Source: Limnothrix sp. RL_2_0 | Lineage (GTDB): Bacteria; Cyanobacteriota; Cyanobacteriia; Cyanobacteriales; MRBY01 | DNA: 42,427 nt | NCBI GenBank assembly: GCA_012033055.1 | Contig: JAAUPR010000025.1 | Coordinates: forward strand, 1-42,427 | Direction: 5' to 3' | Shown here: positions 27,677 to 42,427 of the stretch, one piece after another | Numbering within the stretch: the stretch's first letter is position 1 | Layout of the letters: every line of letters begins with the position of its first letter | Notes under the pieces: generated by a model | Seen by the model: the letters and a program-made list of their open reading frames with translations, nothing else | Databases searched by the model: none | Told to the model about the DNA's origin: nothing | Translations under genes and position numbers: made by a program

Positions 27677-27749
27677 GCGTCCTTAGTTCAGTTGGTAGAA
27701 CGCAGGTCTCCAAAACCTGATGTCGGGGGTTCAAGTCCTCCAGGGCGCG
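27677..27749 (+). tRNA. trnW: tRNA-Trp (CCA anticodon)
   Basis: A 73-nt cloverleaf. The acceptor stem is GCGTCCT/AGGGCGC with one wobble and the D stem is GTTC/GAAC. The anticodon stem CAGGT/ACCTG holds loop CTCCAAA, so the anticodon at 27710-27712 is CCA. The T stem GGGGG/CCTCC holds loop TTCAAGT, and the discriminator is G. The 3' CCA is not encoded. It lies between rplS and secE. Confidence 0.95.
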
Positions 27750-29888: not shown

Positions 29889-30102
29889 TCGATTTTGATT
29901 TAGTAGCAAAAAATTTAATAGCACCAATGCCAGAGACAGCAGGAGTCTTTTGACTTAAATTTCCTGCTTAGGTACTACGCTACATTTAACAAGTTTCTTC
30001 CAAGATTATTTGGAGAAAAGAGCGTGACCCCTGCATTTCCCGCTGGGGTCTATTTTTATCGCTCGTCGGTCAATCTCTCTCAAAAAAGGAGGTGAGAACA
30101 AG
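29889..30102 (+). promoter_or_regulatory. rplJ leader, probable L10(L12)4-binding region with attenuator
   Basis: This 214-nt gap has no ORF. It has the position and general look of the ribosomal L10 leader: paired GCAGGA (about 29937) and TCCTGC (about 29963) segments. A terminator-like stem GACCCC/GGGGTC (30026-30031, 30045-30050) is followed by TATTTTTATC. A very strong AAGGAGGTGA then precedes rplJ. L10-L12 binding here would repress rplJL; the stem could attenuate read-through from rplKA. Confidence 0.6.
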
Positions 30103-38212: not shown

Positions 38213-39787
38213 ATGATCCGACTGAACGAAATCAAGTTGCCCCTCGACCACGAACCAGAGGCGATCGCCGAGGCTATTTGTACCAAGCTTGACCTCAAAC
38301 CCCACGAGCTACTGGAATACACAATTTTTAAACGCAGCTTCGATGCCCGTAAAAAGCGCAATATTTTTCTGGTTTATATCGTCGATATCAAGACCCACAA
38401 AGACAAATCGCTCCTGAAAACTTTTCGGCAAGATCCCCATGTCATCCCGACTCCAGAAATGGATTACAAAATGGTGGGTCATGCACCGGAGAATTTTGAT
38501 TTTGGCGATCGCCCGATTGTGATCGGCATGGGGCCATGTGGCATGTTCGCAGGGTTAATGTTGGCGCGGATGGGTTTTCGACCGATTATTCTTGAACGGG
38601 GTAAACAGGTAGACGAACGCACGAAAGATACCTTTGCCTTTTGGAAAAAACAAGGTGAATTTAATCCCGAATCCAATGCCCAATTTGGAGAAGGGGGAGC
38701 CGGAACTTTTTCCGATGGCAAACTTTACAGTCAAGTGCGCGATCGCCACCATTACAAGCGCAAAGTCTTAGAAGAATTCGTCGAAGCAGGTGCAAATCCC
38801 GAAATTCTCTACATCGCCAAACCCCACATCGGCACATTTAAATTAGTCGGTGTCGTGAAAAAAATTCGCGCAACAATTGAATCCCTCGGTGGTGAAATTC
38901 GTTTTCAAAGCAAAGTAAAAACCGTCGAAATCGAAGACCGCAAAGTTAAAGGCGTTACCCTCGAAAATGGCGAATTTATTCCCAGTACCCACGTCGTCAC
39001 AGCGATGGGACATAGTGCGCGGGAAACCTTCCAAATGCTCTATGACCAAGGCGTTTATATCGAACCCAAACCCTTTTCCATTGGCTTTCGTATCGAGCAT
39101 CCCCAACCCTTAATCGATGAATGTCGTTATGGCGAATTTGCGGGAAACAAAGTGCTCGGCGCAGCGGATTACAAACTCGTTCACCATTGTAAAAATGGGC
39201 GATCGGTTTACAGTTTTTGTATGTGTCCCGGCGGTTTAGTGATTGGTGCAACATCAGAATCTGGCATGGTGGTGACCAATGGAATGAGTCAATATTCTCG
39301 CAACGAACGCAACGCCAATAGCGGCATTGTCGTGGGCATTACGCCAGAAGAAGACTATCCAGATCACCCCCTTGCAGGCATTAATTTACAGCGAAAATTT
39401 GAATCGAAAGCCTTTGAATTAGGTGGTAAAGATTACAGTGCGCCGGGTCAATTAGTGGGTGATTTTTTGGCAGGTCATTCTTCGGAAACATGGGGTAAAG
39501 TGAAACCTTCGTACGCGCCGGGTGTAAAACTTACAGATCTGGGTGAAGCCTTGCCAGATTTTGCCATTGAAGCGATTCGGGAAGCGTTACCTGCTTTCGA
39601 TAGAAAAATAAAAGGTTTTGCGATGGCAGATGCGATACTGACGGGCGTGGAAACGCGTACTTCTTCACCAATTCGCATTAAGCGTGGCAAAGATTTTCAG
39701 AGTATCAATACCCAAGGTCTTTATCCCGGTGGAGAAGGGGCTGGTTATGCGGGGGGGGATTCGTTTCTGCCGGTATCGATGGCGTGA
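38213..39787 (+). CDS. FAD-dependent oxidoreductase (COG2509-type, NAD(FAD)-utilising dehydrogenase)
   Basis: The 524-residue protein has an N-terminal domain of about 95 residues with a KRSFDARKK motif. An FAD-binding Rossmann fold follows (IGMGPCGMFAGLMLARMGFRPIILERG, glycines at 105/107/110). Then come ESNAQFGEGGAGTFSDGKLYSQ and an end ETRTSSPIRIKRGKDF ... GEGAGYAGG. This is the layout of the COG2509 family, whose reaction is not established. ATG 38213 has no clear Shine-Dalgarno. The protein is soluble by eye. Confidence 0.85.
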   Translation: MIRLNEIKLPLDHEPEAIAEAICTKLDLKPHELLEYTIFKRSFDARKKRNIFLVYIVDIKTHKDKSLLKTFRQDPHVIPTPEMDYKMVGHAPENFDFGDRPIVIGMGPCGMFAGLMLARMGFRPIILERGKQVDERTKDTFAFWKKQGEFNPESNAQFGEGGAGTFSDGKLYSQVRDRHHYKRKVLEEFVEAGANPEILYIAKPHIGTFKLVGVVKKIRATIESLGGEIRFQSKVKTVEIEDRKVKGVTLENGEFIPSTHVVTAMGHSARETFQMLYDQGVYIEPKPFSIGFRIEHPQPLIDECRYGEFAGNKVLGAADYKLVHHCKNGRSVYSFCMCPGGLVIGATSESGMVVTNGMSQYSRNERNANSGIVVGITPEEDYPDHPLAGINLQRKFESKAFELGGKDYSAPGQLVGDFLAGHSSETWGKVKPSYAPGVKLTDLGEALPDFAIEAIREALPAFDRKIKGFAMADAILTGVETRTSSPIRIKRGKDFQSINTQGLYPGGEGAGYAGGDSFLPVSMA

Positions 39788-39885: not shown

Positions 39886-40335
39886 ATGGTGCGGACGACG
39901 ATTTCTTTGGCGCAACTGTATGAAGCAGATTATGCGCAATGGCTTGATGAGATGATCATCCTTTTGAAACAGGGAGATTTATCACAGCTAGATCAAGTCC
40001 ATTTATTAGAGGAGCTAGAAGCCTTGGGGCGCAGTGAACGTCATGCGATCGCCAGTCTGACTATTCAGATTATGGTGCATTTATTATTGTATCAATATTG
40101 GGAAGTGGAACGGGGGTGCAATGCAAATCATTGGCAGGTGGAAATTCTAACGTTTCGTACTCAACTTAATCTCAAGTTAACGAAAAATCTCAGCAATTAT
40201 CTTGGGCAAAATTTAGATTCGCTTTATCAAAAAGCTCATAAAATTGCATCGTTAAAAGCTCAAATCACGCTACCGCAACAAAACCTATTTACACTCGCTC
40301 AGGTTTGTGATGAGGACTGGTTGCCAGAAATTTGA
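39886..40335 (+). CDS. DUF29 family protein
   Basis: This 149-residue helical protein matches the cyanobacterial DUF29 pattern: LYEADYAQWLDEMIILLKQGDLSQLD, then LLEELEALGRSERHAIASL, then LLLYQYW and W at mid-length. DUF29 proteins occur in many paralogues in cyanobacteria and have no proven function. CGGAG precedes ATG 39886. The gene is bracketed by a 22-bp exact direct repeat, which suggests that it was inserted or duplicated as a unit. Confidence 0.82.
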   Translation: MVRTTISLAQLYEADYAQWLDEMIILLKQGDLSQLDQVHLLEELEALGRSERHAIASLTIQIMVHLLLYQYWEVERGCNANHWQVEILTFRTQLNLKLTKNLSNYLGQNLDSLYQKAHKIASLKAQITLPQQNLFTLAQVCDEDWLPEI

Positions 40336-40519: not shown

Positions 40520-41719
40520 CTAATCACACAACTTCAATCCTTCTTCAATTAGAATCATAGTTTTTCTGAAACCTAGATTTGCTAACTCTGGATCAGAGTC
40601 ATACAACCATATCTCTTCAATATCAGGCAGACTTTCGTTTTGTGATTGAGCCATAGCAGTTGCAGTTCCATTAACTGTATAGGTTACACCACTATCAACT
40701 TCAAAGAAAACAGCGCTAGGAACTAAGCATTTCAGCGTACCGCTGTGGACAGATAAAGGCCATTGCTCTCCAAACTCTGAAGCTGTTACGAAACGCTCAT
40801 TACTTGATACGGAATTTGAAGCTGAATCTACGCTTGAAACTGAACCCTTTCGAATAGTTATCCATATTCCTAATGTGAAGATCGCAAAAAATGCGGTTGC
40901 TATGGCTGAAACTAAAGGGCTAGTCGTAGATTTAGAGCGGCTAGAGTTTGAACGCAGAGATTCACTCTTGCTATTGACTCGTTTTTTCTGATTATGGAAA
41001 GTTGCTTGTTTTGATTTTTCGGATGATTCACTAATTGCCTTACGTTCTAAGTCAGAAAATTCATCTACCAAAACTTGATCAAACAAACGAAATTCATCTC
41101 GCCAAGCTGGACTTCCGTCACTGATCTTCCTAGCATAAACCCTAATCTTATTAATTCCACCTAGTTCCTGACCATTCAAAATATTTTGAATAATTTCTAT
41201 TGATATTGCTTTCTCTGGTATTTTTGTAGATTCTAAAAGAATATTTAATAAATTTTCTTGCCTACGAGTCTTAACCTTAATCCCTTGTAATTTGAACTTA
41301 TATTTAAGCTGTTGTGTAACCTCAGATTGGTTTTGTGGATTTTTTGCTTTCTCTATCCTAAGAGAAAACTCATGAAAAAATTTACTTGCCGCTTCAGTTT
41401 CCTTTTTTACAGAAATAAATGGTAGGACATTTTCATATTGGTCATAACCAGGCTTGAAACCGGGACTTACAGTTTTAGAACCAGAGTAATGAATTTCGAT
41501 AAAACTGTATTTAAGGGCATTCCAAGATGAAACTTTGTGAAGTTGATAATTTGTTATGTCTTTGAGGTTAATTCTCTTCTTCTCACCTGTACGCTTACTG
41601 AATACGGTACTCAACTTATGTATAGTGAGAAACTTCTCATCAACTTCCCACTCGGTATGTAATCGCTTAAAAGCAATGATATTATTTTCTCTCTCTAGAA
41701 ATTCACCAAAGTCTGACAT
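40520..41719 (-). CDS. membrane protein with PH-like N-domain and DUF2511 (YebY)-like C-domain
   Basis: I start this at ATG 41719 with AAGAG upstream (399 residues); a TTG at 41752 would add 11. Residues about 10-125 look like a bacterial PH-like beta domain (LTIHKLSTVFSKRTGEKKRINLKDITNYQL ... FHEFSLRIEKA). A soluble middle domain and a Ser/Lys-rich linker follow. A transmembrane helix lies near 268-289 (LVSAIATAFFAIFTLGIWITI). A C-terminal domain from about 310 (FVTASEFGEQWPLSVHSGTLKC) resembles DUF2511/YebY. Two cysteines in it (LKCLVP and KLCD) could form a disulfide outside the membrane. AT-rich, no HIP1 site. Function unknown; domain calls are by eye. Confidence 0.68.
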   Translation of the reverse strand: MSDFGEFLERENNIIAFKRLHTEWEVDEKFLTIHKLSTVFSKRTGEKKRINLKDITNYQLHKVSSWNALKYSFIEIHYSGSKTVSPGFKPGYDQYENVLPFISVKKETEAASKFFHEFSLRIEKAKNPQNQSEVTQQLKYKFKLQGIKVKTRRQENLLNILLESTKIPEKAISIEIIQNILNGQELGGINKIRVYARKISDGSPAWRDEFRLFDQVLVDEFSDLERKAISESSEKSKQATFHNQKKRVNSKSESLRSNSSRSKSTTSPLVSAIATAFFAIFTLGIWITIRKGSVSSVDSASNSVSSNERFVTASEFGEQWPLSVHSGTLKCLVPSAVFFEVDSGVTYTVNGTATAMAQSQNESLPDIEEIWLYDSDPELANLGFRKTMILIEEGLKLCD

Positions 41720-41737: not shown

Positions 41738-41753
41738 GTTGACATCAGTCAAC
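41738..41753 (-). promoter_or_regulatory. perfect inverted repeat before the membrane-protein gene
   Basis: GTTGAC-ATCA-GTCAAC lies 18 bases before the ATG at 41719 and covers the alternative TTG start. It could be an operator or an mRNA hairpin controlling translation. Confidence 0.45.
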
Positions 41754-41852: not shown

Positions 41853-42427
41853 TTATTGACATTGCTCTTCCCACCAAGTCCTTAAACCACGCATAGCATC
41901 TACTTCGTTTTCTTTCGCTTTAGTCAGAAACTCATACAATTTCTCTTTGGGAATCATCGGAAAAGTTGGACTTTGCTCAATCTCAACATAAATCCCATCA
42001 TTGAGTTGATAAATTCGCCATTCCTTACCATTAAATCGCCAAAATTCTGGTACGCCTAACTCCGAATAAAACTGATTTTTTGAGATATCCGTGTGAGTAA
42101 TATCCACTTCCACAACGAGATCGGGCGGTGGATCCTTAGTGAAATCAACATTACGACCTTTCACTAAAGGCTGATTTTGAATGTAGTAGGCATTATCTGG
42201 TTCAGCACTTTTGTTTTGGTTGGGATAGTTGAGTCGCGTCGAACCCATTGCCTTAATCGGCAACCCCATCAGCTCCACTAAACCCCGAATGAAATATTCA
42301 ATTAGAGATCGATAAAATTCGTGATCCTCTAAGGGCACAGTAATCTCCAAAGTCCCATTGTCGTAAGTTAGGTGGGCATTCCGTGAATAGGGCAGTGTTT
42401 CTACAATCACGAGGTAGTCATCCCAAG
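41853..42427 (-). CDS. Uma2 family (DUF820) restriction-endonuclease-fold protein, 5' partial
   Basis: The frame runs off the right edge. Before the GTG at 42410 it still reads WDDYLVI, the usual Uma2 N-terminus, so the true start lies beyond the window. The visible 191 residues show ETLPYSRNAHLTYDNGTLEI and then the PD-(D/E)XK core: AEPDNAYYI, then PPPDLVVEVDITHTD and ISKNQFYSELGVPEFW. Uma2 proteins form large paralogous families in cyanobacteria; they have a nuclease fold, but their role is unknown. The intact motifs suggest it is not degenerate. Confidence 0.85.
   Translation of the reverse strand, partial: WDDYLVIVETLPYSRNAHLTYDNGTLEITVPLEDHEFYRSLIEYFIRGLVELMGLPIKAMGSTRLNYPNQNKSAEPDNAYYIQNQPLVKGRNVDFTKDPPPDLVVEVDITHTDISKNQFYSELGVPEFWRFNGKEWRIYQLNDGIYVEIEQSPTFPMIPKEKLYEFLTKAKENEVDAMRGLRTWWEEQCQ

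What the first reader, a model, noticed from the sequence alone, without database searches (positions are those of the whole stretch)
40520..41719. Unusual membrane protein joining a PH-like domain, a linker, one helix and a YebY-like domain
The architecture suggests a cytoplasmic membrane-binding or signalling part coupled through one helix to an extracytoplasmic disulfide-capable DUF2511-like domain. I know of no described system with this combination. The gene is AT-rich, lacks HIP1, and has a perfect inverted repeat before the start, consistent with recent acquisition.
Basis: partly seen in the sequence, partly recalled or inferred. Interest (0 to 1): 0.55.

Follow-up and report, generated by a model that had tools for sequence, protein, structure and literature searches.

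The report
Chimeric membrane protein with DUF2511 head
A cyanobacterial gene encodes a one-helix membrane protein stitched together from a probable PH-like domain, a small domain that many cyanobacteria place in front of very different proteins, and an outer disulfide-capable head also carried by temperate phages; the combination was not seen elsewhere, and its job is unknown.

Summary
The gene is real: 399 codons, minus strand. Its C-terminal head is DUF2511/YebY (Pfam E 4e-10; profile match to solved YebY and a lipoprotein), with both cysteines at the family's invariant positions. One helix (268-290), N-in. The "linker" is mostly wrong: residues 130-212 form a confidently modelled alpha-beta-beta-alpha-beta-beta domain found in 54 of 100 related cyanobacterial genomes, usually at the N-terminus, before signal peptidase, PrsW protease, CheW, EcsC and other outputs; no Pfam model was seen to cover it. 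The PH-like call is supported but unproven: no sequence relatives, and a low-confidence single-sequence model whose listed structural neighbours are mostly PH-superfold (29 of 41, my classification). The gene is accessory: absent from 5 of 5 same-genus genomes at a variable site, GC3 0.275 against 0.39-0.49, its middle domain closer to copies outside the genus. HIP1 absence and the inverted repeat carry little weight. DUF2511 genes lie beside the CI repressor in several temperate phages, so the best mechanism is an envelope-facing binding head (immunity or exclusion type) anchored to a cytoplasmic adaptor. That mechanism is inference. New combination of mostly known or recurrent parts: a new variant, moderate interest.

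The parts
40520..41719 (-). whole gene, 399 aa, ATG start; an in-frame TTG 33 bp upstream (41752) would give 410 aa
41345..41719 (-). residues 1-125, probable PH-superfold domain, no sequence relatives found
   Evidence: no relatives at E 1e-3; low-confidence model, mostly PH-superfold neighbours
41084..41332 (-). residues 130-212, recurrent cyanobacterial alpha-beta-beta-alpha-beta-beta domain without a Pfam model
40922..41083 (-). residues 213-266, charged and Ser-rich linker
   Evidence: sequence; models much of it as a helix with mixed confidence
40850..40918 (-). residues 268-290, single transmembrane helix, N-in by flanking charge (7 Lys/Arg before, 2 after)
40526..40786 (-). residues 312-398, DUF2511/YebY domain, extracytoplasmic
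40727..40729 (-). Cys331, first invariant cysteine
40526..40528 (-). Cys398, second invariant cysteine
41738..41753 (.). GTTGAC-ATCA-GTCAAC inverted repeat upstream of the ATG; of a kind expected by chance

Best explanation
The gene encodes an accessory, chimeric single-pass membrane protein (N-in, C-out). In the cytoplasm sit a probable PH-like domain and a small alpha/beta domain that cyanobacteria place before many unrelated outputs; I propose that these two dock the protein on a membrane or partner and cluster it (inferred). Outside sits a DUF2511 head closed by one disulfide. I propose that it works like an immunity or exclusion lipoprotein: the head binds an incoming molecule or an envelope component at the outer face of the membrane, as the lantibiotic self-resistance lipoprotein MlbQ is thought to do and as the DUF2511 proteins made from the repressor end of temperate phages plausibly do. 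Shown: the ORF, the domains except the PH-like one, the helix, the conserved cysteines, accessory status. Inferred: topology, disulfide, ligand binding, protective role.
For: Domains: (a DUF2511 profile built without the window gene scores it 49.1 bits against at most 3.7 for 200 shuffles; a middle-domain profile without it 47.2 against at most 2.7). Middle domain in 54 of 100 relatives; all 61 loci found with a consensus query are titled as cyanobacteria. Of 96 complete distinct ORFs with the domain, 0 had a predicted helix before it and 73 had one or more after it, as expected of a cytoplasmic N-terminal module. PDB: a six-sequence DUF2511 profile finds 2mvo/6qfp 'Putative lipoprotein' E 3.3e-10 and 7n0j YebY E 0.0023; I recall 2mvo as MlbQ. 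MlbQ's role in NAI-107 resistance: passages of PMC4828448 and PMC4698656. Of 11 annotated regions read, 7 have the DUF2511 gene next to a phage repressor or in the same position. The P. luteola one is zinc ribbon - helix - DUF2511, a precedent for a cytoplasmic domain on this head. Accessory.
Against: No DUF2511 protein of this shape has a tested function in what I read. The window gene is not in a prophage as far as the contig shows (neighbours DUF29 and Uma2). Phage hits to this head alone are weak (E 0.08-8); the link rests on their DUF2511 annotation and on phrog_2950 (E 1.6e-12). E. coli YebY lies beside YebZ, a putative copper importer, which points elsewhere. The other four of the 11 regions: Shewanella beside an integrase, Deinococcus beside a tail tape measure gene, Clavibacter on a plasmid near a relaxase, and Aeromonas LPM4, whose match was only a zinc ribbon and not DUF2511. 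PADLOC gave only one weak match, on the N-terminus (E 0.0097).
Confidence: 0.35

Rival explanations
1. A transmembrane sensor: the DUF2511 head binds a ligand outside and the helix passes a conformational signal to the middle and PH-like domains, which recruit a cytoplasmic effector.
For: Outer domain, one helix and cytoplasmic domains is a sensor layout; the middle domain also heads a CheW-like protein and precedes many single-helix proteins.
Against: No output enzyme, DNA-binding domain or kinase partner in the protein or beside it. The middle domain also heads proteins without predicted helices, 23 of 96.
Confidence: 0.25
2. A copper or redox related envelope protein, as suggested for YebY by its neighbours.
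For: yebY lies by yebZ and pcoC in many gammaproteobacteria (passage of PMC3548706) and yebZ is listed as a putative copper importer (passage of PMC12288456); two conserved cysteines.
Against: No CopC, CopD or YebZ gene next to this one. Both cysteines are family-wide and fit a structural disulfide. Phage and plasmid members lie in other contexts.
Confidence: 0.15
3. A chance fusion or decaying orphan without function, recently built at a variable site.
For: No orthologue of the N-terminus in 291 other phylum genomes or 387 other order genomes at E 1e-3; no other DUF2511 gene of this length; atypical GC3.
Against: Frame open over 399 codons, cysteines and fold residues of two domains kept, sensible order of domains around one helix.
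Confidence: 0.2

Closest known systems
DUF2511 / YebY family (PF10709; PDB 7n0j)
   Same: fold residues, both cysteines, extracytoplasmic placing
   Different: the DUF2511 genes in the other nine genomes of the phylum found are short (lipoprotein-like or one helix, two with broken frames); none has room for the middle and PH-like parts
2mvo/6qfp 'Putative lipoprotein' (recalled as MlbQ, lantibiotic self-resistance lipoprotein)
   Same: DUF2511-like core by profile, E 3.3e-10
   Different: lipoprotein, not helix-anchored; no cytoplasmic domains
Prophage DUF2511 proteins between cI and int (PSP3, SW9, Midge, 613R3; phrog_2950)
   Same: DUF2511 domain
   Different: small proteins in a lysogeny operon; window gene has no phage neighbours in view
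P. luteola prophage protein WP_010799795 (zinc ribbon - helix - DUF2511)
   Same: cytoplasmic domain, one helix, DUF2511 head; DUF2511 part 33% identical
   Different: zinc ribbon in place of PH-like and middle domains
Unnamed cyanobacterial alpha-beta-beta-alpha-beta-beta domain proteins (signal peptidase, PrsW, PGA_cap, CheW, EcsC, Pilin_GH fusions)
   Same: middle domain, cytoplasmic side, often before a single helix
   Different: domain is normally N-terminal; here about 130 residues precede it, and the output is DUF2511

Membership tests
DUF2511/YebY | match to PF10709 above its cut-off | tested here: met
   40.4 bits against 21, residues 312-398
DUF2511/YebY | conserved cysteine pair | tested here: met
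   Cys331 and Cys398 invariant in 6 of 6 aligned; the profile aligns them with cysteines of the YebY chain
DUF2511/YebY | export across the membrane | not testable with these tools
   only hydropathy and charge bias
Cyanobacterial middle domain | profile match by a model built without the window gene | tested here: met
   47.2 bits, residues 132-212; 200 shuffles at most 2.7
Cyanobacterial middle domain | no membrane helix before the domain | tested here: met
   none before residue 132 (peak at 269-287), as in 96 of 96 complete ORFs. Its position is unusual: more than 60 residues lie between first Met and domain in only 3 of those 96
PH superfold | seven-stranded barrel capped by a C-terminal helix | tested here: inconclusive
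   single-sequence model, pLDDT 39.6, strands then helix 109-126; best Z 5.1, 29 of 41 rows PH-superfold by my knowledge of the entries; Foldseek E 0.51 or worse
Bacterial PH families in Pfam | sequence match | tested here: inconclusive
   only FucT_N at E 0.019, below its cut-off; HMMER filters drop weak matches
Lantibiotic immunity lipoprotein (MlbQ type) | lipid-anchoring cysteine and a lantibiotic gene cluster beside it | tested here: not met
   helix anchor with no cysteine near it; neighbours DUF29 and Uma2; contig ends just beyond Uma2
Prophage lysogeny gene | neighbouring repressor or integrase | tested here: inconclusive
   none among the neighbours scanned, but the contig ends just beyond Uma2, so one side is out of view

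The most novel reading that the evidence does not exclude
A phage-type exclusion head (DUF2511) has been captured by a cyanobacterium and plugged into a general, still unnamed cyanobacterial cytoplasmic docking system, which places unrelated outputs (protease, signal peptidase, pilin, exclusion head) at chosen membrane sites. The window protein would then be a host-owned barrier against phage or peptide entry.
Probability: 0.15. Interest if true: 0.65.

Novelty: new variant of a known kind. Interest (0 to 1): 0.36.

Why it matters
The single gene is an accessory curiosity. It exposes two wider things that can be tested: a cyanobacterial domain without a Pfam model that recurs before many unrelated outputs, and a small disulfide-capable domain of unknown function that sits next to the CI repressor in P2/186-like phages and resembles a solved lipoprotein that I recall as a lantibiotic immunity protein. 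A function for either would carry over to many genes.

Tried and rejected
Rejected: the middle as a plain linker. Rejected as evidence for acquisition: HIP1 absence and the inverted repeat; the zero expectation is for a pattern chosen after seeing the match. Weak N-terminal matches (E 0.001-1): of the ten loci returned I read four, which were a frame with a stop inside or proteins that looked unrelated, such as a sulfotransferase-like ORF; taken as chance. PDC-M03B (E 0.0097): followed, in which the window's own genome has no match at E 1e-3; not pursued. FucT_N: below cut-off. The whole-protein structure model is confident only for residues about 131-210 and part of the linker and helix; its PH-like and DUF2511 parts are not usable. 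Structure neighbours of the middle domain (alpha-lytic prodomain-like 4hlb and KhpB, both Z 8.5; RimP 7.8; BolA, secretion-ring and KH-like folds below) are common small folds, so I name no relative. Whole-protein tblastn in phages: no match. The first genome-contig scan and the viral-contig scan with the whole protein: none. The Aeromonas phage LPM4 hit was not counted as DUF2511: it matched only the zinc ribbon. Literature searches for DUF2511, YebY and related terms showed no function paper in the listings; of papers I saw search listings and passages only (passages: PMC4828448, PMC4698656, PMC3548706, PMC12288456, PMC9927464). No paper on the middle domain turned up in one search with general terms.

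Full report
What is there. The ORF runs 41719 to 40520 on the minus strand, 399 codons from ATG; an in-frame TTG at 41752 would add 11 residues. It lies between a DUF29 gene (39886-40335, plus strand) and a Uma2 gene (41853-42410, minus strand). The contig ends at 42427, so one side is unknown.

Head. Pfam gives DUF2511 over residues 312-398, E 4e-10, well above its cut-off. PHROGs gives phrog_2950, E 1.6e-12. A DUF2511 profile built without the window gene gives 49.1 bits; 200 shuffles reach at most 3.7. The protein has two cysteines, 331 and 398; both are invariant in six aligned domains. A profile of those six finds the solved chains 2mvo/6qfp 'Putative lipoprotein' (E 3.3e-10) and 7n0j YebY (E 0.0023). 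I recall 2mvo as MlbQ; that name comes from no call. MlbQ is described as conferring resistance to the lantibiotic NAI-107 (passages of PMC4828448 and PMC4698656).

Helix and topology. One hydrophobic stretch, peak 269-287. Seven Lys/Arg in the 27 residues before it and two in the 27 after; one and three acidic residues. This favours N-in, C-out. It is not a proof.

Middle domain. Searching 100 related genomes with the whole protein gave matches in 54, all lying within residues 117-313, most within 120-250. The matched segments align as one domain. A profile built from 38 loci pieces without the window gene gives 47.2 bits at 132-212; 200 shuffles reach at most 2.7. A consensus query found 61 loci in the genome collection, all titled as cyanobacteria. 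Among 96 complete distinct ORFs at 89 loci (window gene left out), none had a predicted helix before the domain, 73 had one or more after it, 52 exactly one, 23 none, and 17 held two or more copies. C-terminal partners by Pfam: signal peptidase, PGA_cap, PrsW, CheW, EcsC (8 proteins scanned); PrsW, Pilin_GH, EcsC and others (48 scanned of those fetched). No family in either scan was matched by more than 2 proteins, so no Pfam model appears to cover the domain. The window's genome has nine profile matches and the five same-genus genomes three to seven each (the profile includes the window copy). The model is confident here (pLDDT mostly above 90), order alpha-beta-beta-alpha-beta-beta. Best structural neighbours reach Z 8.5 (4hlb and KhpB), which may mean only a common small fold.

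N-terminus. No sequence relative at E 1e-3 in 291 other phylum genomes or 387 other order genomes. The single-sequence model is poor (mean pLDDT 39.6) but shows strands followed by a helix at 109-126. Of 41 listed neighbours with Z 2 or more, I count 29 as PH-superfold (Tfb1, bacterial PH 3hsa and 3dcx, GLUE, FERM, FACT subunits, PRU, PTB and others), 10 as chemokines and 2 as other; the best Z is only 5.1, and Foldseek's best E is 0.51. The classification rests on my knowledge of the entries. PH-like is the likeliest reading, unproven.

Inheritance. The FAD-dependent gene upstream (38213-39787) is conserved at 84-91% identity in 5 of 5 same-genus genomes, but what follows it differs from the window in all five (in one of them a 70% identical DUF29 gene is kept), and none has the window gene. 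GC3 is 0.275, against 0.39-0.49 for five other genes at this end of the window. The closest middle domains, ranks 2-66 of the 129 held, lie outside the genus; the best copy in its own genome ranks 80th. Caution: part of the outside set was picked by similarity to this gene. DUF2511 occurs in 7 of 386 phylum genomes and 4 of 388 order genomes, own genome included. The nine others have open frames of at most 234 aa, two of them broken, and the intact ones look like lipoproteins or one-helix proteins (by eye). Together this supports an accessory chimeric gene. The five-genome genus sample is small.

Phage link of the head. I read 11 annotated regions, 10 fetched by this protein or its head and 1 by the P. 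luteola protein. In PSP3, SW9, 613R3 and Midge the DUF2511 gene lies between the annotated repressor and the integrase; RCIP0057 has the same layout with the repressor position labelled hypothetical; in K. pneumoniae 176 it follows CI; in P. luteola it follows an HTH regulator next to phage tail genes. The Shewanella gene lies next to an integrase, the Deinococcus gene next to a tape measure gene, the Clavibacter gene on a plasmid near a relaxase. The eleventh, Aeromonas LPM4, matched only through its zinc ribbon. The P. luteola protein is zinc ribbon, helix, DUF2511, so a cytoplasmic domain on this head has a precedent. Genes in that position are usually made in the lysogen (recalled knowledge of P2/186-like phages), which suggests exclusion or conversion.

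Mechanism. Most likely, at about 0.35: a membrane-anchored binding head with a protective role, docked from the cytoplasmic side by the middle and PH-like domains. The head's role is inferred from MlbQ and the phage position, the docking role from how the middle domain recurs before unrelated outputs. A sensor is the main rival.

Verdict. Observation partly confirmed; interpretation partly supported. New variant of a known kind; interest 0.36.

Noticed in passing
L059-L118 and own-genome loci L035, L041, L047, L052, L057: A cyanobacterial domain without a Pfam model (about 95 aa, alpha-beta-beta-alpha-beta-beta) heads many unrelated membrane and soluble proteins, sometimes in tandem.
   Followed up: partly
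L144, L145, L146, L166, L167, L170: DUF2511 genes sit between CI repressor and integrase, or just after CI, in P2/186-like phages and a prophage; a candidate superinfection-exclusion or conversion gene.
   Followed up: partly
L052 (own genome, contig C192): The roughly 1000-aa tandem-domain protein of the genus is split here into a 432-aa frame and a second overlapping frame, so it may be broken or carry a sequencing error.
   Followed up: no
window 29912-30065 and 27677-27749: L10 leader and tRNA-Trp; ordinary.
   Followed up: no
   Followed up: no
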